In this document: positions 10,222-19,316 of the stretch, piece after piece
Layout: every line of letters starts with the position of its first letter
Numbering within the stretch: position 1 is the stretch's first letter
Source: Prevotella sp.
Lineage (GTDB): Bacteria; Bacteroidota; Bacteroidia; Bacteroidales; Bacteroidaceae
Direction of reading: 5' to 3'
DNA length: 41,731 nucleotides
NCBI GenBank assembly: GCA_017619445.1
Contig: JAFZSI010000054.1
Span: 1 to 41,731, forward strand
Made by a program: the position numbers and the translations under genes
The notes under the pieces: model-generated
Told to the model about the DNA's origin: nothing
The model's input: only the letters and a program-made list of their open reading frames with translations
Databases searched by the model: none

Positions 10222-11604
10222 CTACTCTATTTCCAAGGCTATGGGCTGGACGGGCAACGGCTGAGGAAGGGACACGCTGACGCGATTGCCTTGAACGCCG
10301 TACTTAAGTTGGTGCCCGTTGCTGAGCAGGCGGATGCGCTTGCTCGGGAGGTTTTCTGTCCAGGACAGTTTTTCAGGGAGCGTCTGGCCTTCGTCCGGTA
10401 TGCAGATGGCATAGCGGCGTGTGCCGTCCTTCGACTGTGTGAACCAGATGTTGCCCTCGTGGTAGTGGGGCGTGATGGTTGTGTTGTAGATGGCTTTTCC
10501 GTTGGCACGGAGCCACTGTCCAATCTCGCTGAGGCGGCTGATGTCCTCGGGCGAGAGCAATCCTTCGGGTGTGGGACCTACGCCGAGCACCATGTTACCT
10601 CCCTTGGCCACCACTTCGGCGAGCGTTGCGATGACCTTTGCGGCGGATTTGTAGCGCGCGTTGCGCGTGTAGCCCCAGTCGTCGGTAAGCGGGATGCAGC
10701 TTTCCCAAGGGTAATTGAGCTGACGCTCAGGTATGGTGCGCTCGGGTGTCTGATAGTTCTCGTAGGGACCGCGAATGGTGCGGTCAACGATGATGATGCC
10801 GGGCTGGCGGCTGCGTGCCATGGCGGCAATGGCCGGCATATTGATGTCCTGCTGGCGGTTCTCGGGGCACACCCATCCCCCGTCGAGCCAGAGGATGTCC
10901 ACGCGCCCGTAGCGCGAGAGAATTTCATCGATTTGCCTATGTGTGAACTGGCAGAACTGTTGCCAGCGCCAGGGATGCTGGTCAATGGGATAATTGACGT
11001 TGCGACCCTTTTTGGCATACACGTCCCACCAGTAGTATTGTGAGTGCCAGTCGGGCTTGGAGTAATAGGCACCGATGACGAACTGCTGTTCGCGGAAAGC
11101 ATCGAACACATGGCGAAGCACGTCGCGGCGCGGGTCGTCCTTGAATGCTTGGCGGGCAATGGTGAAGTCGGTCTCGTGAGAGTCAAACATACAGAATCCG
11201 TCGTGGTGCTTGGTGGTGAAAATCATGTATTTCATGCCTGCGTCATGGCAAGCGGCGGCCCATTGCGCCGGGTTGAACCTTGTGGGGCGGAACTCGCGGC
11301 ACAAACCCCAGTACCAGTCGAGATACTGCTGGTAGGTGCGCGTTGTGTCGCGCTTAATCCACGGCTCGTCGCAGATGGACCACGACTCCACGATGCCCGG
11401 CACAGCATACAGCCCCCAGTGAAGCAGCACGCCGAACTTCATGTCTTGCCATTGGCCGAGCTTTTTCAGAACCTGCTGGTCCTGCGGCCACTCATACTGG
11501 TCTGACTGCTCATGAATGTTGTTCTCCTGGGCGCTTGTTGGCTGGGCAAACAGGAACATGGCTGACAGGAGCATTGAAACAAGAAAAAGGGTAAGGTTTT
11601 TCAT
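10222..11604 (-). CDS. GH29 alpha-L-fucosidase, exported
   Basis: The 460-residue protein begins with a Sec signal peptide (MKNLTLFLVSMLLSAMFLFA, cleavage near QPTSAQE). The catalytic TIM barrel follows: KFGVLLHWGLYAVPG, MKYMIFTTKHHDGFCMFDS and GRVDILWLDGGW, whose Asp is the expected nucleophile. Later blocks include NYPWESCIPLTDDWGY and a short beta-rich C-terminal domain. By family it releases terminal fucose from host glycans or plant oligosaccharides in the periplasm. The frame opens upstream at 11736, but ATG 11604 gives the proper signal peptide. It lies 44 bases after radC on the same strand and has no susCD partner beside it. Confidence 0.92.
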   Translation of the reverse strand: MKNLTLFLVSMLLSAMFLFAQPTSAQENNIHEQSDQYEWPQDQQVLKKLGQWQDMKFGVLLHWGLYAVPGIVESWSICDEPWIKRDTTRTYQQYLDWYWGLCREFRPTRFNPAQWAAACHDAGMKYMIFTTKHHDGFCMFDSHETDFTIARQAFKDDPRRDVLRHVFDAFREQQFVIGAYYSKPDWHSQYYWWDVYAKKGRNVNYPIDQHPWRWQQFCQFTHRQIDEILSRYGRVDILWLDGGWVCPENRQQDINMPAIAAMARSRQPGIIIVDRTIRGPYENYQTPERTIPERQLNYPWESCIPLTDDWGYTRNARYKSAAKVIATLAEVVAKGGNMVLGVGPTPEGLLSPEDISRLSEIGQWLRANGKAIYNTTITPHYHEGNIWFTQSKDGTRRYAICIPDEGQTLPEKLSWTENLPSKRIRLLSNGHQLKYGVQGNRVSVSLPQPLPVQPIALEIE

Positions 11605-11648
11605 GGTTTTGTTTTTGGGTGAGTGTTCTGCCTGAGTGCCGCGTCGTT

Positions 11649-12383
11649 TCACAGACGGCCCTGTTCGTAGTAGGAATAATACTTGCCGTCGGTGACAATG
11701 ACATGGTCCATGAAGAAGATGCGCATCACTTCGCATGCTTTTTTCACGCGTTGGGTCAGCTGGTCATCAAATTTACTGGGAACAGGGTTGTTGCTGGGAT
11801 GGTTATGGCAGAGCGCAAGAACGGTGGCGTTGGCCAGCAAGGCCTCTTTCATGATGATGCGCAAATCGACAGACGTCTCGCTGATGCCTCCGTGAGATAT
11901 GCGCACCAGTTTGATGAGTTTATAGTTCTGGTTCAACAGCAGCACCCACGCTTCCTCCACGTCGAGGTCCTGCATCTTGGGGTGCATGAGGTTATACACG
12001 GCTGTGGCGGTGCCGATGTCCTTGCGCTCCTCGGCTTTTTCGGCCTGGCGGCGCTTGCCCAGCTCACAGGCAGCAAGAATGGTGATGGCCTTGGCCTCGC
12101 CCACGCCGTTGTACTCCATCAATTCGCGAATGGTGCGCTTGCCCAGCGTTTTCAGATTGTTGTTGCAGTCTTTCAGCACGTGTTGCATCAGCGCCACGGC
12201 ACTCTCCTTGGTCGAGCCGGAACCGATGAGAATGGCCAGCAGCTCTGCGTTGCTCAGAGCCTCGGCTCCGAGCCTCATCAGTTTCTCGCGCGGGCGGTCT
12301 TCTTCGGCCCACTGATTGATATTTAGTTTAAGTTCAGAACTACCAGTTCTAAGTTCAGAGTTATGATTACCTTTTGTTTTCAT
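11649..12383 (-). CDS. radC: DNA repair protein RadC (JAMM domain)
   Basis: The 244-residue protein has an N-terminal helix-hairpin-helix-like part (GAEALSNAELLAILIGSGS). The C-terminal MPN/JAMM metalloprotease-like domain carries the zinc motif CHNHPSNNPVPSKFDDQ. Its biochemical role is unsettled despite the name. The family usually begins just before the block INQWAEEDRPREKL. Here about 18 extra residues, MKTKGNHNSELRTGSSEL, precede it. Residues 5-15 are encoded by one arm of the inverted repeat around the neighbouring four-helix-bundle gene. The ATG overlaps that gene's stop codon as TAATG, suggesting coupled translation. No internal Met offers a better start. Confidence 0.9.
   Translation of the reverse strand: MKTKGNHNSELRTGSSELKLNINQWAEEDRPREKLMRLGAEALSNAELLAILIGSGSTKESAVALMQHVLKDCNNNLKTLGKRTIRELMEYNGVGEAKAITILAACELGKRRQAEKAEERKDIGTATAVYNLMHPKMQDLDVEEAWVLLLNQNYKLIKLVRISHGGISETSVDLRIIMKEALLANATVLALCHNHPSNNPVPSKFDDQLTQRVKKACEVMRIFFMDHVIVTDGKYYSYYEQGRL
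12340..12370. repeat. Left inverted-repeat arm (inside the radC 5' end)
   Basis: This arm matches 12769-12799 in reverse complement with three mismatches. On the minus strand it encodes RadC residues 5-15. A smaller palindrome built on AGTTCAGAACT touches its outer edge. Confidence 0.85.
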
Positions 12384-12754
12384 TAGTCCAGGCCATTTTT
12401 ATGTTTCAAGGTATTAATTGACGCTACAAGTATCTTTATTATTTCTTCATTGTCTTTAAGCATTGACAGGAATCCTCTTTTTTCAATGTAACTTCCGGCA
12501 TACAGTTTCTCTAACCAATATTTTGTCTCATCCGCTTCCTTTAATGCAATTTTCAGTTTATGAACAAAATCTTTGGAACTTTCGGCATTGCGACTCTCTG
12601 CGATATTTGCCCCAATGCTTGTTCCACTTCTCATGATTTGAGCAGAAAGGATTTGCTCTTTCTTCTCTTCTCTGAGATACTGATAGAGTTTTACTATTCT
12701 ATCGGTATAATTGTCCACTTTTATACGCAGGATACTCTCTTTTCGTTGTAACAT
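12383..12754 (-). CDS. Four-helix-bundle protein (23S rRNA intervening-sequence protein family)
   Basis: The 123-residue basic, all-helical protein carries the family core SAQIMRSGTSIGANIAES near residues 37-54, followed by a long amphipathic helix (FVHKLKIALKEADETKYWLEKL). The family was first noted inside 23S rRNA intervening sequences of Leptospira. It also includes the Avd subunit of diversity-generating retroelements. The function of stand-alone members is unknown; binding RNA or DNA is plausible from the Avd precedent. No reverse transcriptase or template repeat is seen nearby. The gene is more AT-rich than radC and the glycosyltransferase. It sits inside inverted repeats and its stop overlaps the radC start. 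Confidence 0.9.
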   Translation of the reverse strand: MLQRKESILRIKVDNYTDRIVKLYQYLREEKKEQILSAQIMRSGTSIGANIAESRNAESSKDFVHKLKIALKEADETKYWLEKLYAGSYIEKRGFLSMLKDNEEIIKILVASINTLKHKNGLD

Positions 12755-12768
12755 GGCATTAAGGAAAT

Positions 12769-12799
12769 GTAATCATAACTCTGAACTCTGAACTCGTAG
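12769..12799. repeat. Right inverted-repeat arm
   Basis: This arm is the partner of 12340-12370. It holds two tandem CTCTGAA units and begins 15 bases upstream of the four-helix-bundle start. Confidence 0.85.
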
Positions 12800-12802
12800 T
12801 TA

Positions 12803-13846
12803 TTAACTATAGAAGTTCTTTTCAAAGGCAGTAAATTCGTCTTGTTTAAGCACACAGCGTTTCCACCACGACTCAATGAAGCCGAAACCATAGCCCATGA
12901 GCTGGACGAATGCTGCGGGAACAGAGAGCAGACCCACGCGCAGGCTCTTGTTGCGGATGGAGGAGTCGATGAAGATGATGAGACTGTAGAGCAGGATGGG
13001 GAGCCACGGCAACAGTGCCACCCAGTACCACGACCGCCAGTTCGATGCGTCGTAGTACATCATGGCGCGCCCGAAAGCGGAGACGAGTATCAGAATGATG
13101 ACGCCCACAGTGAACACGGTGGGCAAAAGGTGTACCAGTTTCAGGGTGCCGGGATGGCGTTTCTCAAGGTTGATGCGCGCGATGCCGCTGTTATACACCT
13201 GGCGGAAGAACTTGCGGAAGTCGGTGCGGCGCTTGTGCCACACCCATGCATCGGGAAAAAGGCGCGGACGGTAGCCTGCCTCCACAATGCGGTAGCTGAA
13301 ATCGATGTCCTCGCCAAAGCGCATCTTCGAAAAGCCGCCCAACTGGCTGTAGATGTCGCGGCGGATGCCCATGTTGAACGAGCGCGGATAGAATTTGTCG
13401 AGCTTGTGTTTGCCGCCCCGTATGCCGCCGGTGGTGAAGAACGATGTCATGGAGTAACTGATGGCCTTCTGCACGTCGGTGAACGAGGGGTGCGAGGCAT
13501 CGGGGCCGCCAAAGGCTTCGGCAGGCTCTTGCTTCATCTCGCTGTCAACAGCCTGCATGTAACCGTCGGGCAAAACCACGTCGGAATCGAGCACAATGAG
13601 CATATCGCCCGTTGCACGCTCGGCACCATAGTTGCGGCTCTGACCAGGGCCAGAATTGGGTTTTGCGAAGTATTTCACATCCATCTGGCCCGAGTATTTC
13701 TCCACCACGGAGCGGCAGTCGCGCGTGGAGCCGTCTTCAACAATAATCACCTCAAAATCTTTGTAAGTCTGGCGGCCAAGACTCTGCAACAGCTCGTCCA
13801 CCTCGTCGGGACGATTATAGACAGGAACAATTATGGAGTATTTCAT
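12803..13846 (-). CDS. Family 2 glycosyltransferase, membrane-associated
   Basis: The 347-residue protein starts with the GT-A fold strand MKYSIIVPVYNRPDEVDELL. It then shows VEDGS, the metal-binding VLDSDV and the acceptor-site motif GEDIDFSYRI. About three hydrophobic segments follow near residues 245-320 (FTVGVIILILVSAFG, WVALLPWLPILLYSLIIF, VGLLSVPAAFVQLMGYG), so the enzyme acts at the inner membrane. It should move a sugar from a nucleotide donor to a lipid or polysaccharide acceptor; the substrate is unknown. ATG 13846 is chosen because the beta strand begins there. The only good -7 box ends six bases upstream, which would make the message almost leaderless. Confidence 0.88.
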   Translation of the reverse strand: MKYSIIVPVYNRPDEVDELLQSLGRQTYKDFEVIIVEDGSTRDCRSVVEKYSGQMDVKYFAKPNSGPGQSRNYGAERATGDMLIVLDSDVVLPDGYMQAVDSEMKQEPAEAFGGPDASHPSFTDVQKAISYSMTSFFTTGGIRGGKHKLDKFYPRSFNMGIRRDIYSQLGGFSKMRFGEDIDFSYRIVEAGYRPRLFPDAWVWHKRRTDFRKFFRQVYNSGIARINLEKRHPGTLKLVHLLPTVFTVGVIILILVSAFGRAMMYYDASNWRSWYWVALLPWLPILLYSLIIFIDSSIRNKSLRVGLLSVPAAFVQLMGYGFGFIESWWKRCVLKQDEFTAFEKNFYS

Positions 13847-13851
13847 GCGGA

Positions 13852-13859
13852 CAAAGATA
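13852..13859 (-). promoter_or_regulatory. -7 promoter box almost touching the glycosyltransferase start
   Basis: The minus strand reads TATCTTTG, then TCCGC, then the ATG. With a start of transcription about seven bases beyond the box, the RNA would begin at or next to the ATG. Confidence 0.55.
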
Positions 13860-13973
13860 CGAAAAATATGAGTAAGAGAGCGCAAAGAAACCTCGTTTTT
13901 TTGCCGAGCACGAAGATTTTATCTAAAGTTAAACATTTATCCCGTTTTGGAGTCCTATTTCATAAATTATTTG

Positions 13974-13981
13974 TATTTTTG
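13974..13981 (+). promoter_or_regulatory. -7 promoter box for the DUF59 gene
   Basis: TATTTTTG followed by CGACC matches TAnnTTTG, 21 bases before the ATG at 14003. Confidence 0.65.
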
Positions 13982-14002
13982 CGACCAAAAAGTGACACCA
14001 TT

Positions 14003-14323
14003 ATGACTCAGCAAGAAAAAACAATGACGGAAGAACGCATCGTCGATGTCCTGAAGACCGTCTATGACCCCGAAATTCCCGTTGACATCTGGAACCTCGG
14101 CATGATATACAGAATAGATGTCAAGGACGATGGCAATGTGGAGGTTGACATGACCTTCACCGCGCCCAACTGTCCTGCAGCCGACTTCATCCTCGAGGAT
14201 GTGCGCACCAAGATTGAGAGCGTGGAGGGCGTTGGCAGCGTCAACGTCAACCTGGTGTTCGAACCCGCATGGGACCAAAGCATGATGAGCGAGGAAGCCC
14301 GCGTGGAACTGGGATTTGACTGA
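14003..14323 (+). CDS. DUF59 / MIP18-family protein, SufT-like iron-sulfur assembly factor
   Basis: The 106-residue protein is one MIP18 domain. The visible pattern is VLKTVYDPEIPVDIWNLGMIYRI, then MTFTAPNCPAADFI with the conserved Cys, then VEGVGSVNVNLVFEPAWDQSMMS. Members help load iron-sulfur clusters onto target proteins. The Bacteroidales homologues are usually annotated as metal-sulfur cluster assembly factors. The frame is open far upstream across the opposite-strand glycosyltransferase gene, but ATG 14003 (or 14024) is the start, just after a -7 box. lpxH follows 34 bases downstream, probably in the same transcript. No other suf genes are in the window. Confidence 0.85.
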   Translation: MTQQEKTMTEERIVDVLKTVYDPEIPVDIWNLGMIYRIDVKDDGNVEVDMTFTAPNCPAADFILEDVRTKIESVEGVGSVNVNLVFEPAWDQSMMSEEARVELGFD

Positions 14324-14357
14324 ACGGTTATTGTTTGTTGTAAATGATTATTGAAAT

Positions 14358-15122
14358 ATGAAAAACGTATATATTCTTTCTGACGCCCACCTGGGCTCAT
14401 GGGCCATTGAGCACGGACGCATGCAGGAGCGGCGCCTCGTGCGGTTCCTTGATGCCATCAAGCACAAGGCAGCTGCCGTCTATCTCTTGGGCGACATGTT
14501 TGACTTCTGGTACGAATGGAAATACACCGTGCCGAAAGGCTACACGCGTTTCCTCGGCAAATTGTCGGAGCTTACCGACTTGGGGGTGGAAGTGCACTAC
14601 TTCACGGGCAACCACGACATCTGGACATACGGATACTTGGAGAAGGAGTGCGGCGTAATCCTGCACAAGAAACCAACCACCGTGGAGATTTACGACAAAG
14701 TGTTCTATCTGGCACATGGTGACGGACTGGGCGACCCCGATAAGAAGTTCAAATTCATCAGAACCATGTTCCACAACCGCTTCTGCCAGAAAATGTTCTC
14801 GTCACTTCATCCGCGCTGGAGCATGTGGTTCGGACAGACATGGGCAAAACACTCGCGGCTGAAACGCGCCGACGGAAAAGAGCCGCCCTACATGGGCGAA
14901 GACAAAGAGCAACTGGTGCTCTACTCGAAAGAATACATCAAGAACCATCCCGACATTGACTACCTGATTTACGGTCACCGACATATTGAGCTCGACCTCA
15001 TGCTCAGCCACAAAAGCCGCATGATTATACTCGGCGACTGGATTTGGCAGTTCTCCTACGTGGTCTTCGACGGCGAGCACCTTTTCCTCTCGGAGTATGC
15101 CGAGGGCGAAAGCCAGATGTAA
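14358..15122 (+). CDS. lpxH: UDP-2,3-diacylglucosamine diphosphatase (LpxH type)
   Basis: This calcineurin-like metallophosphoesterase should cleave UDP-2,3-diacylglucosamine to lipid X in lipid A synthesis, at the inner face of the inner membrane. In the 254 residues the metal motifs appear in order: SDAHLGSW, LGDMFDFWYEWKY, TGNHDIW, AHGDGLG and IYGHRHIE. The ATG at 14358 starts directly before the first strand. It follows the DUF59 gene and is ended by the strong hairpin at 15151. Confidence 0.9.
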   Translation: MKNVYILSDAHLGSWAIEHGRMQERRLVRFLDAIKHKAAAVYLLGDMFDFWYEWKYTVPKGYTRFLGKLSELTDLGVEVHYFTGNHDIWTYGYLEKECGVILHKKPTTVEIYDKVFYLAHGDGLGDPDKKFKFIRTMFHNRFCQKMFSSLHPRWSMWFGQTWAKHSRLKRADGKEPPYMGEDKEQLVLYSKEYIKNHPDIDYLIYGHRHIELDLMLSHKSRMIILGDWIWQFSYVVFDGEHLFLSEYAEGESQM

Positions 15123-15150
15123 CTCGCCCAACCAAACATACGAAAACGAA

Positions 15151-15199
15151 ATTCCCTCCCCCCATCCTTTATGGTTGCGGGGGAGGGAATGTTTTTTTT
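15151..15199 (+). terminator. Strong hairpin between lpxH and ackA
   Basis: ATTCCCTCCCCC (15151-15162) pairs with GGGGGAGGGAAT (15179-15190), followed by a run of eight T. It is a Rho-independent terminator for lpxH lying between convergent genes. Confidence 0.9.
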
Positions 15200-15244
15200 C
15201 CTTTTTAGAAGCAAGGCAGCCATATACTGCCCTAAGCCGCAAGG

Positions 15245-16438
15245 CTACTTCAGCAGGTTCATGGTGTCGGTGGCAATCATCAGCTCCTCGTCGGTGGGGA
15301 TGACCACGACCTTCACGCGCGAGTCGTCGGCAGAGATGATGGCCTCCTCGCCGCGCACGCGGTTTTTCACCTCGTCGAACTTCACGCCGAGGAACTCCAT
15401 GTCCTTGCAGACCTCCGAGCGCATGCTCAGCTGGTTCTCACCAACTCCGGCGGTGAACACGATAACATCGAGTCCGCCCATGGCAGCAGCGTAGGCACCG
15501 ATGTACTTCTTGATGCGATAGAAATACATGTCCTGTGCCAAACGGGCGCGGTCGTCGCCCTCAATGGCAGCCTGCTCCACGTCGCGCATGTCGCTCTTGC
15601 CACCGGTGAGTCCAGCCACACCACTCTGCTTGTTCAGAAGGTTAGACATACCATCGGCATCCAATCCGAGTTTCTTCTCAATGAACGTCACAGCACCGCC
15701 GTCGATGTCACCGGCACGAGTGCCCATCATCAGGCCCTCAAGCGGCGTGAGGCCCATCGAAGTGTCAATGCACTTGCCATCCTTCACGGCTGCAATAGAG
15801 CCTCCGTTGCCCACATGACAGGTGACCATCTTGGTGCCTTCAGCGGGAATACCAAGGAACTCGCAAGCGCGGGCAGACACGTAGCGATGGCTGGTGCCAT
15901 GGAAGCCGTAGCGACGAATGCCATACTTCTCATACAGTTCGTAGGGAATAGCATACATGTAAGCCTTCGGCGGCATGGTCTGGTGGAAAGCGGTGTCAAA
16001 CACACCCACCTGCGGCAGACCAGGCATGAGTTCCTTCACAGCATTCACACCCTTCAGGTTGGCGGGGTTGTGAAGCGGAGCCAGGTCGGAGCACTCCTCG
16101 AACACCTTGAGCACCTCGTCGGTGAGAATCACCGACTTGTTGAACTTCTCGCCGCCATGCACCATGCGATGGCCAACAGCATTAATCTCGCTCAGGTCTT
16201 TAATGACGCCTATCTCGGGGTCGGTAAGCAGGGAGAAAATGAACTTCACTCCTTCGGTGTGCTCAGGAATGTCGTGCATAATCTGCCGTTTCTCGCCGTT
16301 GGCGAGTTTCACTTTCACAAATGCGCCGTCGAGTCCCACGCGCTCTGCGCCGCCCGATGTCATCACACTCTTGTCGTCCATGTTGTACAATGCGTACTTG
16401 ATGGAACTGCTTCCGCAGTTAAGAACTAATATTTTCAT
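15245..16438 (-). CDS. ackA: Acetate kinase
   Basis: The enzyme makes ATP and acetate from acetyl phosphate in the cytosol, the energy-yielding end of mixed-acid fermentation. The 397-residue length is typical. Motifs are VLNCGSSSIKYALY at the N-terminus, GHRMVHGGEKF, RRYGFHGTSHRYVS, and FTAGVGENQ towards the C-terminus. pta, for the preceding step, lies upstream on the same strand. In this window the two are separated by the GxxExxY element at 16459-17004, which ends only 20 bases before the ackA ATG, so ackA may be read through that element or from a promoter within it. Confidence 0.97.
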   Translation of the reverse strand: MKILVLNCGSSSIKYALYNMDDKSVMTSGGAERVGLDGAFVKVKLANGEKRQIMHDIPEHTEGVKFIFSLLTDPEIGVIKDLSEINAVGHRMVHGGEKFNKSVILTDEVLKVFEECSDLAPLHNPANLKGVNAVKELMPGLPQVGVFDTAFHQTMPPKAYMYAIPYELYEKYGIRRYGFHGTSHRYVSARACEFLGIPAEGTKMVTCHVGNGGSIAAVKDGKCIDTSMGLTPLEGLMMGTRAGDIDGGAVTFIEKKLGLDADGMSNLLNKQSGVAGLTGGKSDMRDVEQAAIEGDDRARLAQDMYFYRIKKYIGAYAAAMGGLDVIVFTAGVGENQLSMRSEVCKDMEFLGVKFDEVKNRVRGEEAIISADDSRVKVVVIPTDEELMIATDTMNLLK

Positions 16439-16458
16439 AATTTGTTGTTTTTTTGAGG

Positions 16459-16505
16459 GAAACGAATTTGAATAATTAGAATAATTTATTCACGAATGAG
16501 AATAA
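16459..16505. repeat. Left 47-bp inverted-repeat arm (ackA side)
   Basis: This arm is the partner of 16958-17004 with three mismatches. It contains TTATTCACGAAT and AATAATTAGAATAATT. Confidence 0.9.
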
Positions 16506-16518
16506 AAAATATAAAAGA

Positions 16519-16950
16519 TTATTCTATAATATAGAATTTATAATTGTCCTGATTCAGAAGAACGAAGTCGTCCTCTTCAGGGAGATAAAGGTAACGCTCA
16601 GTATAGAGTTGTCTTTCTCCAAAGTTGAAAAGCAACCCTCTCTCGGCCTTGGACATACGCATATAATTCATGAGTTGAGCACGATGATCGGAGATTATAC
16701 TCTCTACTGACTTAAACTCAATAACAATGCCATTATAATAGAAGTCTGCATAGTAGGTCTTTTCCATCTGCAAACCTTTATAATGTAGCCGAAGCTCTTT
16801 TTCTCTTTCGAACTTTTTTCCTCTGAGCCCCATTTCCAAAGCAAAAGCCTCTTGATAGATAGGTTCTGCCATACCTCGTCCCAGAGTTTTGTGAACTTCC
16901 ATGGCAACACCTACAACCTCATAAATATCTCGATACTCCTGCCTTGTCAT
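16519..16950 (-). CDS. GxxExxY protein (PD-(D/E)xK nuclease-like)
   Basis: The 143-residue protein has the naming motif G26-x-x-E29-x-x-Y32 within GRGMAEPIYQEAF. Its PD-(D/E)xK-like core is Asp69 in YADFYYNG and Glu78-x-Lys80 in IVIEFKSV. A conserved AQLMNYMRM helix and the LLFNFG strand follow. The fold suggests a metal-dependent nuclease, but no member's role is known to me. It is more AT-rich than pta and ackA and is tightly bracketed by long inverted repeats, so it is probably the cargo or enzyme of a small mobile element. ATG 16950 lies just inside the right arm. Confidence 0.93.
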   Translation of the reverse strand: MTRQEYRDIYEVVGVAMEVHKTLGRGMAEPIYQEAFALEMGLRGKKFEREKELRLHYKGLQMEKTYYADFYYNGIVIEFKSVESIISDHRAQLMNYMRMSKAERGLLFNFGERQLYTERYLYLPEEDDFVLLNQDNYKFYIIE

Positions 16951-16957
16951 GATATTA

Positions 16958-17004
16958 TTATTCTAATTCGTGAATAAATTATTCTAATTATTTTAATTCG
17001 TTTC
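16958..17004. repeat. Right 47-bp inverted-repeat arm (pta side)
   Basis: This arm is the partner of 16459-16505. It lies 7 bases upstream of the GxxExxY start codon and 41 bases downstream of the pta stop. Confidence 0.9.
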
Positions 17005-17045
17005 TTAAATGCTTTATTCGATTATTTGTTTCTATTAAATTTTCA

Positions 17046-18053
17046 CTATTTCGCATCCATGGCCTGGCAGGCGGTGATGGCGACGAGGTAGTAGATGTCG
17101 TCGATGGAGCAGCCACGCGAGAGGTCGTTCACGGGACGGGCGATGCCCTGGAGGATGGGACCTACGGCGATGGCGTCGCCCAGACGCTGCACCAGCTTAT
17201 AGGCGATGTTGCCCACCTCGAGGTTGGGGAACACCAGCACATTGGCATTGCCGGCAATGTCGCTGCCCGGAGCCTTCTTCTTGCCCACGGCGGGCACGAG
17301 GGCTGCGTCGGCCTGCAGTTCGCCGTCAATCTTGATGGCGGGATCGAGTTCCTTGGCCAGGCGTGTGGCCTCGACAACCTTATCCACCACCTCGTGCGAG
17401 GCACTGCCCTTGGTAGAGAAGCTCAGCATGGCTACGCGCGGGTCGTCGAAACCGGCCACCGAACGGGCGGTCTGTGCCGTGCAGACAGCAATCTGCGACA
17501 GCTGTGCGGCGTCGGGCATGGGTGTTACGGCCACGTCGCCTACGACAAGCACGCCGTCCTCGCCAAACTCGGGTTTCTGGGTGATGAGCAGCATGGCACC
17601 GCTGACACAGGTGATGCCCGGGGCGCACTTGATAATCTGCAGAGCCGGGCGCAAAGTCTCGCCCGTAGTGGAGAGTGCGCCGCTGATTTGTCCGTCGGCA
17701 CCCTCGGTCTTGATAATCATGCAACCCAGGTAGAGCGGGTTCTTCACCAGCTCGCGGGCCTGCTCAATGGTCATGCCCTTCTTTTTGCGCAGCTCGCAGA
17801 GCAGCTGGGCATACTCCTCGCTCTTCTCGCAGTTCTCCGGGTCGATGATGGTGGCCTTGCCAATGTTCTCAAGGCCCCACTCGGCTGCCAGACGGTTGAT
17901 TTCGTCGGGGTTGCCGATGAGCACGATGTTGGCAATGTCATCGGCCAGCACCTTGTCGGCAGCTTTGAGTGTACGCTCCTCTGTTGCCTCGGGGAGCACA
18001 ATGCGCTGCTTGTTTGCCTTAGCTCGCGCAACGATTTGATTTAATAAATCCAT
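17046..18053 (-). CDS. pta: Phosphate acetyltransferase
   Basis: The enzyme converts acetyl-CoA and phosphate to acetyl phosphate, feeding acetate kinase. The 335 residues correspond to the short form, with only the catalytic PTA domain and none of the N-terminal regulatory domains of E. coli Pta. Motifs include KQRIVLPEATEERTLKAA, TTGETLRPALQIIKCAPG, a serine/glycine-rich FSTKGSA and DIAGNANVLVFPNLEVGN, and DLSRGCS near the end. It has its own -7 box at 18128-18135. The normal partner ackA is displaced by the GxxExxY element. Confidence 0.97.
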   Translation of the reverse strand: MDLLNQIVARAKANKQRIVLPEATEERTLKAADKVLADDIANIVLIGNPDEINRLAAEWGLENIGKATIIDPENCEKSEEYAQLLCELRKKKGMTIEQARELVKNPLYLGCMIIKTEGADGQISGALSTTGETLRPALQIIKCAPGITCVSGAMLLITQKPEFGEDGVLVVGDVAVTPMPDAAQLSQIAVCTAQTARSVAGFDDPRVAMLSFSTKGSASHEVVDKVVEATRLAKELDPAIKIDGELQADAALVPAVGKKKAPGSDIAGNANVLVFPNLEVGNIAYKLVQRLGDAIAVGPILQGIARPVNDLSRGCSIDDIYYLVAITACQAMDAK

Positions 18054-18127
18054 AGTCTGTGGTTTTTTGTTTGTGTTTTTATAATATGTGTTTTATAATA
18101 TTAATAATGTGTTTATCATCCATTCTG

Positions 18128-18135
18128 CAAAAATA
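18128..18135 (-). promoter_or_regulatory. -7 promoter box for pta
   Basis: The minus strand reads TATTTTTG followed by CAGAATGG, matching TAnnTTTG, 74 bases upstream of the pta ATG. Confidence 0.65.
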
Positions 18136-18244
18136 GGAAAAATAATCCACATATCCTTTCTGTAAAACCCTAAAAATTGTTATGCCTGAGATTTTTTTCT
18201 AATGAAACTTCCATTCCACCCCACCGCATGTTGTTTACGCAACA

Positions 18245-18319
18245 CATAGAGTTGTTTGCGCCATACTACACTCTACGACAACAACTCTATGCTTTACGCG
18301 AAATTTTTCTAGAAAATTT
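18245..18319. repeat. Inverted repeat joined to a copy of the AAATTTTTCTAGAAAATTT repeat
   Basis: CATAGAGTTGTT (18245-18256) pairs with AACAACTCTATG (18280-18291). It runs directly into CTTTACGCG and AAATTTTTCTAGAAAATTT (18301-18319), the same signature as the two copies at 9979-10102. Confidence 0.75.
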
Positions 18320-18477
18320 GCCCATAATGCTTATGTTTGTTTTCTTACCCGAAAACTCCATAACCGCCATGTGCAAGAATAAGCTCATAAATCCACCTGT
18401 AAACGCTCGGAGGCTTTGTCAAGGGTGCTCACAAATAAAAAGCTCTTAAAACTTTTGGCATTTTGCTCACTTAATCG

Positions 18478-18485
18478 TATCTTTG
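18478..18485 (+). promoter_or_regulatory. -7 promoter box for the flavodoxin gene
   Basis: TATCTTTG followed by CACC, 30 bases before the ATG at 18516. Confidence 0.7.
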
Positions 18486-18515
18486 CACCATTGATAACAT
18501 AAAAATTTTACGCAC

Positions 18516-19316
18516 ATGAAAAAACTTTTATTATCACTTATCGTTATGGCATCCATTACAACAGGTTGTGCACAAAAGAGCCTGGTGCTCTACTATTCAG
18601 AGACGGGTACGACGAAGGCCGTGGCCGAAGAACTGCAAAAACAACTCGGCGCCGACATCGAGAGCATCGAGCCGGTGGAGCCCTATACGGGCAATTTCCA
18701 GGAAACCATCCAGCGCTCAGGGCGCGAGAGAGAAAGCGGACAGACACCTGCGCTGAAACCGCTGAAGAAGAAGATTGCCGACTACGACGTTATCTTCCTC
18801 GGCTACCCCATCTGGTTTGGCACCTACGCCATGCCCATTGCCACGCTGGTGAAGGAGAACGACTTTGAGGGCAAGACCATCATTCCGTTCTGCACATTCG
18901 GCAGCGGAGGACTGAACACCTCGACCGACGCTCTGAAGAAGGCACTGCCCAAAGCCAACATTCAGAAAGGCTACGGCGTGCGCACGGCAAGGGTAAAAGC
19001 GGCTGAACGCGAGCTGGACCGTTTCCTGAAAGAAAACGGGTACAAGGAGGGCACCGTAGAGAAACTGCCCGACTACTCGGCACAGCAGCCCGTCACTGAC
19101 GAGGAGCGCGCCATCTTCGATGCCGCCTGCTCAGACTATCAGTTCCCGCTTGGCACACCCAAGACTGTGGGCAAGCGCACCACACCCGACGGCACAGACT
19201 ACCAGTTCACCGTAACCGGCCGGGGCATGGACGGAGCTGAATCGACTTCCACTATCTATGTGACAGTGGGCAAGGAAGAGGGCGCAAAGCCCGAATTCAC
19301 CGAGGTGGTGAGGTAA
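18516..19316 (+). CDS. Flavodoxin-fold lipoprotein
   Basis: The 266-residue protein starts with a lipoprotein-type signal (MKKLLLSLIVMASITTGC, Cys18). A flavodoxin domain follows (about residues 20-170): the phosphate loop YYSETGTTKAVA, then IFLGYPIWFGTYAMP and PFCTFGSGGLNTS, both near the FMN ring. The last 70 residues contain a DEERAIFDAACSDYQFPLG segment and a beta-rich tail, not part of a standard flavodoxin. A periplasmic, membrane-tethered flavoprotein is implied. Electron transfer or quinone/nitro reduction is possible, but the substrate is unknown. The gene is monocistronic between a TATCTTTG promoter and the terminator at 19381. Confidence 0.85.
   Translation: MKKLLLSLIVMASITTGCAQKSLVLYYSETGTTKAVAEELQKQLGADIESIEPVEPYTGNFQETIQRSGRERESGQTPALKPLKKKIADYDVIFLGYPIWFGTYAMPIATLVKENDFEGKTIIPFCTFGSGGLNTSTDALKKALPKANIQKGYGVRTARVKAAERELDRFLKENGYKEGTVEKLPDYSAQQPVTDEERAIFDAACSDYQFPLGTPKTVGKRTTPDGTDYQFTVTGRGMDGAESTSTIYVTVGKEEGAKPEFTEVVR

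What the first reader, a model, noticed from the sequence alone, without database searches (positions are those of the whole stretch)
16459..17004. GxxExxY gene enclosed by 47-bp inverted repeats, inserted between pta and ackA
The sequence shows two 47-base arms, 44/47 complementary, bracketing a single PD-(D/E)xK-like gene in the middle of what is normally a tight pta-ackA pair. The gene reads the same way as its hosts, so the pta transcript would place it in the loop of a long stem. No transposase is present. I infer a small mobile or self-propagating element, with the GxxExxY protein as its possible nuclease.
Basis: partly seen in the sequence, partly recalled or inferred. Interest (0 to 1): 0.82.

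Follow-up and report, generated by a model that had tools for sequence, protein, structure and literature searches.

The report
Nuclease gene in mobile inverted-repeat element
A small nuclease gene in a Prevotella-like gut bacterium sits between two mirror-image DNA arms that travel with it between genes and also occur as short gene-less hairpins, pointing to a little-noticed kind of mobile element that shares a landing site with another, unrelated gene family.

Summary
A 143-aa GxxExxY (PD-(D/E)XK) gene lies between 50-nt arms, 92% complementary, between pta and ackA. In 81 loci of this protein's clade, 77 have flanking inverted repeats above the 99th percentile of same-spaced control windows. 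Arms and gene form one unit: between loci at different genomic sites, arm similarity follows protein similarity (rho 0.42; maximum of 300 within-site permutations 0.25). The upstream neighbour reads the same way in 79 of 79 callable loci. The arms also occur as gene-less hairpins (9 of 11 such places in the own genome), and arms are commoner in genomes with the gene (27 of 34) than without (19 of 166). Of 99 pta-ackA gaps, 15 hold this gene, 12 an unrelated 23S-rRNA-IVS-type (IVP) gene, 72 no gene. The window holds a second such element, with an IVP gene. Arm mismatches show no RNA-strand bias (72 v 72). Most likely: a transposase-less inverted-repeat mobile element whose nuclease acts on its arms as DNA. 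Cutting and transposition are inferred.

The parts
16459..16508 (.). arm beyond the gene's stop codon (3' arm of the gene), GAAACGAATTnnnATAATTnnnATAATT...CACGAAT
   Evidence: 50 nt, 92%; pattern match with 0 mismatches
16519..16950 (-). GxxExxY / PDDEXK_3 gene, 143 aa, with E29, D69, E78-x-K80
   Evidence: conserved residues
16955..17004 (.). arm next to the gene's start codon (5' arm), 4 nt from the ATG
15245..16438 (-). ackA, downstream host gene
   Evidence: PF00871
17046..18053 (-). pta, upstream host gene
   Evidence: PF01515
12331..12374 (.). arm of a second element of the same architecture (tandem AGTTCAG-like units)
   Evidence: sequence; alignment with IR score 58
12383..12754 (-). 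23S_rRNA_IVP gene, 123 aa, cargo of the second element
   Evidence: PF05635 E 3.6e-24
12765..12808 (.). partner arm of the second element

Best explanation
The feature is one copy of a small, transposase-less inverted-repeat mobile element. Its arms, built from degenerate AATT-ended units of about 9-12 bp, and its lone PD-(D/E)XK nuclease gene evolve and move as one unit. It enters gene junctions a few tens of bases after a stop codon, in the direction of the upstream gene, so the gene is probably read from the host operon. Gene-less hairpins with the same arms are its non-autonomous (MITE-like) copies. Inferred: the nuclease recognises and cuts the arms as DNA (cruciform, or hairpin in single-stranded DNA), and repair or template copying places a copy at a new site or over an element already there, which would explain repeated use and replacement of cargo at the same junction. 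Shown: the unit, its multiple sites, its gene-less copies, its genome-level link to the gene, and the sharing of the pta-ackA site with IVP genes. Not shown: cutting, excision or insertion.
For: 77 of 81 loci exceed the control 99th percentile for inverted flanks, 65 of 81 the control maximum. Sites: pta|ackA, three other recurrent junctions and single sites; the tree needs 14 site changes where 4 is the least possible, and starred branches force at least 4 for pta|ackA. Cross-site arm v protein rho 0.418, 0 of 300 within-site permutations as high. Arms in 46 of 200 genomes, reversed-pattern control 0 in all 200; 27 of 34 ortholog genomes v 19 of 166, p 5e-15; among 70 genomes with ackA at least 90% identical, 19 of 23 v 7 of 47, p 5e-8. 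Nine of 11 gene-less places in the own genome are inward-facing hairpins scoring 36-50. In 30 arm loci, the five arm pairs that bracket an ORF all bracket GxxExxY. Gene-less arms resemble the gene's arms of their own genome (11 genomes, permutation p 4e-4). Upstream neighbour same strand 79 of 79, 12 of 12 distinct neighbour clusters. Median dN/dS 0.063 over 37 pairs. A decayed copy, L106, keeps its arms.
Against: No target-site duplication (13 of 54 with 3 nt or more, 15.5 expected). No exact empty site: no arm of this type was found in 12 of 12 relative loci (7 own-genome places), but only one flank aligns in each. No sign of recent copying of the gene itself: in the six named genomes with two clade copies the two fall in different parts of the tree; within-genome duplicates were not otherwise tested. 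Four of 81 loci are not above the control 99th percentile and 16 score under 40; only 49 of 81 pass the swap 95th percentile and the own partner arm is best of 81 in 24. Two of the nine hairpins (39 and 36) do not exceed the control maximum of 39 in 88 scans. Gene-less arms rank their own genome's gene copy first in 2 of 11 genomes. Nineteen genomes have arms without a detected ortholog, and 19 of 30 arm loci had no partner arm within 4 mismatches. No solved relative and no structure prediction was available.
Confidence: 0.6

Rival explanations
1. IVS-like RNA element: the arms pair in the transcript, RNase III cuts the stem, and the gene is carried in an excised loop as in 23S rRNA intervening sequences.
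For: Gene-in-hairpin anatomy and codirectional placement. The same pta-ackA site holds genes of the 23S rRNA IVS protein family between inverted arms. Coxiella IVS is cut by RNase III at its terminal inverted repeats (PMC4990558, abstract and passages seen).
Against: Mismatches in the arms are not biased towards sense-strand G-U: 72 v 72 for GxxExxY in 65 loci, 24 v 39 for IVP loci. The element is between protein genes, where excision without ligation would split the message (inference).
Confidence: 0.15
2. The arms are ordinary dispersed intergenic hairpins moved by something else, and GxxExxY genes are passengers caught between two of them.
For: Many gene-less hairpins; 19 genomes have arms but no detected ortholog. 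Seven of nine arm-rich genomes searched have a Y1_Tnp match over the cut-off.
Against: In 30 arm loci these arms bracketed no gene other than GxxExxY. Arm type follows the protein across sites. Y1_Tnp has no match in G178 (18 arms) and only a sub-cut-off one in G000 (20 arms), and no arms lie in the eight Y1 loci examined.
Confidence: 0.15
3. Arms are regulatory 3' hairpins (mRNA stabilisers or terminators) and the gene is a host gene that happens to sit in operons.
For: Arms start a median of 18 nt after the upstream stop codon in 63 loci.
Against: Patchy presence (15 of 99 gaps), different cargo at 94% identical flanks, 14 site changes on the tree, no wobble bias.
Confidence: 0.07

Closest known systems
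23S rRNA intervening sequences with IVP/S23 protein genes
   Same: single small ORF inside terminal inverted repeats; IVP genes between such arms occupy the same pta-ackA site in other genomes and a second place in this window
   Different: the described Coxiella example lies in an rRNA gene and is cut out as RNA; here the cargo is an unrelated nuclease, the site is between protein genes, and no RNA-level selection was seen
REPIN/RAYT systems (recalled; papers seen only as a search listing)
   Same: dispersed gene-less hairpins linked at genome level to a gene
   Different: RAYT is a Y1 (HUH) tyrosine transposase; here the gene is PD-(D/E)XK, arms are about 45-50 nt of degenerate units, and eight Y1 loci carried no such arms
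Insertion sequences and MITEs (recalled)
   Same: terminal inverted repeats round one gene, gene-less derivatives
   Different: no transposase domain, no target-site duplication, arms differ widely between copies while staying matched within a copy
Paired opposite-strand 7/8-nt tandem repeat sites of Geobacter metallireducens (PMC2700814)
   Same: pairs of short tandem-repeat arrays on opposite strands at variable distance
   Different: described there as predicted global-regulator binding sites, with no link to GxxExxY or IVP genes in the passages seen
Cas4 / RecB-like nucleases
   Same: weak profile similarity (Cas_Cas4 in 42 of 61 members at E up to 0.5)
   Different: best E 5.9e-4; the window protein has no cysteine for an Fe-S cluster

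Membership tests
GxxExxY / PDDEXK_3 protein family | match to PF13366 and TIGR04256 above curated cut-offs | tested here: met
   112.2 bits v 22 and 115 bits v 35
GxxExxY / PDDEXK_3 protein family | conserved E, D, ExK residues | tested here: met
   E29, E78, K80 invariant and D69 at least 90% in 61 sequences; nuclease activity itself not tested
Classical insertion sequence | known transposase domain between the repeats | tested here: not met
   the ORF between the arms is PDDEXK_3
Classical insertion sequence | target-site duplication | tested here: not met
   13 of 54 with 3 nt or more, 15.5 expected
MITE-like non-autonomous copies | gene-less copies with the same terminal repeats, several per genome | tested here: met
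   9 of 11 gene-less arm places in the own genome are inward-facing hairpins, 7 of them above the maximum of 88 control scans; counts
REPIN/RAYT | Y1_Tnp tyrosine transposase linked to the repeats | tested here: not met
   7 of 9 arm-rich genomes have Y1 over the cut-off, but G178 has none, G000 only sub-cut-off, and none of eight Y1 loci holds an arm
23S rRNA IVS | location inside an rRNA gene | tested here: not met
   between pta and ackA
23S rRNA IVS | IVP protein | tested here: not met
   met for the element at 12331-12808, not for the GxxExxY element
23S rRNA IVS | processing by RNase III | not testable with these tools
   no RNA data; wobble test null
Cas4 | Fe-S cluster cysteines | tested here: not met
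   no cysteine in P0001; 50 of 81 clade members cysteine-free

The most novel reading that the evidence does not exclude
GxxExxY and IVP genes are interchangeable cargo of one previously unrecognised class of mobile element: matched arrays of short degenerate repeats in opposite orientation, each array type cognate to the protein it carries, with gene-less hairpin populations and fixed operon-junction landing sites. The nuclease class would be a new, transposase-free way of moving DNA, and 23S rRNA intervening sequences would be one special case of it.
Probability: 0.4. Interest if true: 0.87.

Novelty: new variant of a known kind. Interest (0 to 1): 0.74.

Why it matters
GxxExxY is a widespread protein family (74 of 148 genomes of the phylum sampled) for which the libraries used here name only a nuclease superfamily. 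Linking it to its own arms and to gene-less hairpins gives it a testable role, offers an origin for some short tandem-repeat arrays between genes, and ties it to rRNA intervening sequences, whose origin and function are called unclear in PMC4990558 (passage).

Tried and rejected
Rejected: RNA stem as the selected feature (wobble test 72 v 72). Target-site duplication. RAYT/Y1 as the mobiliser (nine arm-rich genomes looked at). Known RNA family: one sub-threshold Rfam match in 11500-18600. Defence-system membership: PADLOC gives six weak matches for P0001 (best Cas4, 1.9e-4) and none for the IVP. Exact empty sites: 12 of 12 relative loci of seven own-genome hairpins show no such arm, but only one flank aligns; among the 99 pta-ackA gaps, close pairs were compared by score only and no filled/empty pair close enough to read the ends was found. 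Viral contigs: 5 loci encode a relative, not pursued. PDB profile search: nothing credible.

On the counts. The pta-ackA gaps are 90 fetched loci plus 9 already known to hold the gene (repeat row L040 dropped), so 15 of 99 is not an unbiased frequency. The 80 named loci are the best 80 of 122. 'Ortholog' means a match of at least 51% identity in the listing; dropping the 51% rows gives 18 of 22 v 8 of 48 among close genomes. The arm pattern is anchored on the window's own arms, so divergent arm types are under-counted; one search used 11 genomes for which both kinds of arm were listed. In one search, 47 places were given, three (L090, L093, L094) had no ORF matching the profile, and L077 and L311 are the same place, so 36 of 44 rows is 35 of 43 places; its profile was built from seven of these loci, and L092 is a sub-cut-off match. 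IVP sorts A, B, C are my labels; one member of each (L184, L183, L121) lies at a PF05635 match, the other nine were assigned by sequence likeness. Motif presence in the 80 loci is partly circular, since two motifs were the search patterns. In one search the hairpin reported for L301 joined two neighbouring elements; the inward-facing one was measured (score 39, 95 nt).

Full report
What is there. The window holds a 143-aa ORF (16519-16950, - strand) that matches PDDEXK_3 and GxxExxY, between inverted arms of 50 nt, 92% complementary, in the pta-ackA gap. Residues E29, D69 and E78-x-K80, the pattern expected of a PD-(D/E)XK nuclease, are kept. A second element of the same build lies 3.7 kb away: an IVP gene (PF05635, 12383-12754) between 44-nt arms at 12331-12374 and 12765-12808.

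More than chance. For the window copy plus 80 named loci of the same protein clade, mostly Prevotella and Prevotellaceae MAGs, the flanks of the gene were aligned to each other as inverted repeats. The median score is 55, against 15 for 925 same-spaced windows in the same loci; 77 of 81 exceed the control 99th percentile and 65 of 81 its maximum. When arms are swapped between loci the median falls to 22; 49 of 81 true pairs exceed the swap 95th percentile, the true partner is the best of 81 in 24 cases and in the top five in 59. Swapping is a hard control here because related loci have related arms.

One unit at many places. Neighbouring genes sort the 81 loci into pta|ackA (30, by either neighbour), a second junction (34), two smaller ones (5 and 3) and nine others. 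On the protein tree the sites are clustered, as inheritance would give, yet 14 site changes are needed where 4 is the least possible, and well-supported branches alone force at least 4 for pta|ackA and 3 for the second junction (144 columns, so many forks are unresolved). For 2231 pairs of loci at different sites, where flanks cannot be homologous by place, arm similarity rises with protein similarity (rho 0.418; within-site permutation mean 0.084, maximum 0.249 of 300). So arms go with the gene.

Direction. The upstream neighbour is on the gene's strand in 79 of 79 loci with a callable neighbour (two had none), over 12 of 12 distinct neighbour clusters; the left arm starts a median of 18 nt after its stop codon (63 loci). 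In 33 loci across the phylum it is 28 of 31, two having no callable upstream neighbour. Either insertion is oriented, or only copies read from the host operon survive.

Gene-less copies. The arm pattern (2 mismatches or fewer) occurs in 46 of 200 same-genus genomes and its reversed control in none; counts reach 117 in one genome and are 20 in the window's own. In the own genome 9 of 11 gene-less places are inward-facing hairpins of 84-115 nt scoring 36-50; 88 control scans have median 15, 95th percentile 21 and maximum 39, so seven of the nine exceed every control. Genomes with a protein ortholog have arms in 27 of 34 cases, others in 19 of 166 (p 5e-15); among 70 genomes with ackA at least 90% identical to the window's, 19 of 23 against 7 of 47 (p 5e-8). 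In 30 loci centred on an arm, 5 are short hairpins, 5 bracket a GxxExxY ORF, one pair is 260 nt apart without an ORF, and 19 had no partner within 4 mismatches. Gene-less arms resemble the gene's arms in their own genome more than permuted (p 4e-4), though the own copy ranks first in only 2 of 11 genomes.

Same site, other cargo. Of 99 pta-ackA gaps (9 of them taken because they hold the gene), 15 have GxxExxY (one frameshifted), 12 an IVP gene of three sorts (two look broken), 31 are 63-236 nt without an intact gene, and 41 are under 50 nt. Of the 31, 24 have an inverted-repeat score above all of 100 shuffles and one, L106, is a decayed GxxExxY with its arms. Eleven of the 12 IVP gaps have inverted flanks scoring 37 or more; L137 has 22. 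By eye each IVP sort has its own arm type. Two genomes whose pta ends are 94.4% identical hold different IVP sorts (L173, L176); the window and its nearest relative (AckA 99%) hold GxxExxY proteins only 68.5% identical. The core of one IVP arm type, GTGAAGAATTTGCTACCGC, occurs in 48 of 120 genomes, control 0, again with close inverted pairs. Over all, 35 of 43 distinct IVP places exceed the control maximum of 26 for inverted flanks (one repeat place removed).

Wider. TIGR04256 matches 74 of 148 genomes of the phylum. Of 33 loci (30 of these plus three own-genome paralogs), 22 exceed the control 99th percentile and 16 its maximum; many arms are CACAGAG- or CGCAAAG-like arrays. Eleven of 33 do not pass, so the link is general but not universal at this sensitivity.

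How it works. If the arms were kept for pairing in the transcript, mismatches should favour G-U in the sense strand. They do not: 72 against 72 in 65 loci, 24 against 39 for IVP. The arms thus look like DNA sites in mirror orientation. I infer that the nuclease binds and cuts its arms as DNA and that repair or copying spreads the unit; this is not shown. There is no target-site duplication and no exact empty site. In the six named genomes with two clade copies, the copies are not near neighbours on the tree, so recent copying of the gene itself is not seen; the gene-less hairpins are the better sign of spread. Purifying selection on the protein is clear (median dN/dS 0.063 in 37 pairs, dS high).

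What is known. I saw passages of five papers: Coxiella IVS (PMC4990558: S23p gene in terminal repeats, RNase III excision, a mobility role for the ORF mentioned as a theory), CPR rRNA insertions (PMC11270868: IVP scattered over sites, sometimes where other families predominate), Geobacter metallireducens (PMC2700814: paired opposite-strand tandem repeats called regulator sites), TAACTGA repeats (PMC4679880) and the reverse transcriptase survey PMC8934634. REPIN/RAYT papers were seen as a search listing only. Searches for GxxExxY, PDDEXK_3, TIGR04256 and PF13366 in the held library gave three papers; two were seen as listings with the start of the abstract, and in PMC8934634 the single mention concerns a gene beside a CRISPR-linked reverse transcriptase. 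Further searches on IVS proteins, intergenic heptamers and Bacteroidetes repeats listed nothing that ties GxxExxY to inverted arms; only this library was searched. Names of junction genes other than pta and ackA are recalled, not tested, and so are the general traits of REPIN/RAYT, insertion sequences and Cas4.

Noticed in passing
window 12331-12808: A second gene-in-inverted-repeats element carrying a 23S_rRNA_IVP gene, between a glycosyltransferase gene and a RadC-family gene; the RadC ORF as listed (11649-12383) begins inside the element, over one arm, so its true start is probably further in.
   Followed up: partly
L300-L310 (own genome, 11 places): Gene-less hairpins with the window's arm type; several lie just after genes with near-identical 3' ends and their outer flanks are alike too, so some copies may have spread with the gene end (by eye).
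   Followed up: partly
pta-ackA gaps L097, L117, L124, L127, L148, L154 and others: Even short gaps often look made of 7-9-nt tandem units; L123 and L143 hold a single TTTGCTACCGC core like the arms of IVP sort A, as a solo-arm footprint would (by eye).
   Followed up: no
L101, L131, L138, L141, L165 pta-ackA gaps: A different hairpin family (about AGCCCACCCAAGCCCTCCC) sits at the same junction, with no gene.
   Followed up: no
L001, L002, L003: The three other GxxExxY genes of the genome, 31-33% identical to the window's, each have inverted repeat flanks of a different sequence.
   Followed up: partly
L185-L189: Five viral contigs encode GxxExxY relatives; flanks not examined.
   Followed up: no
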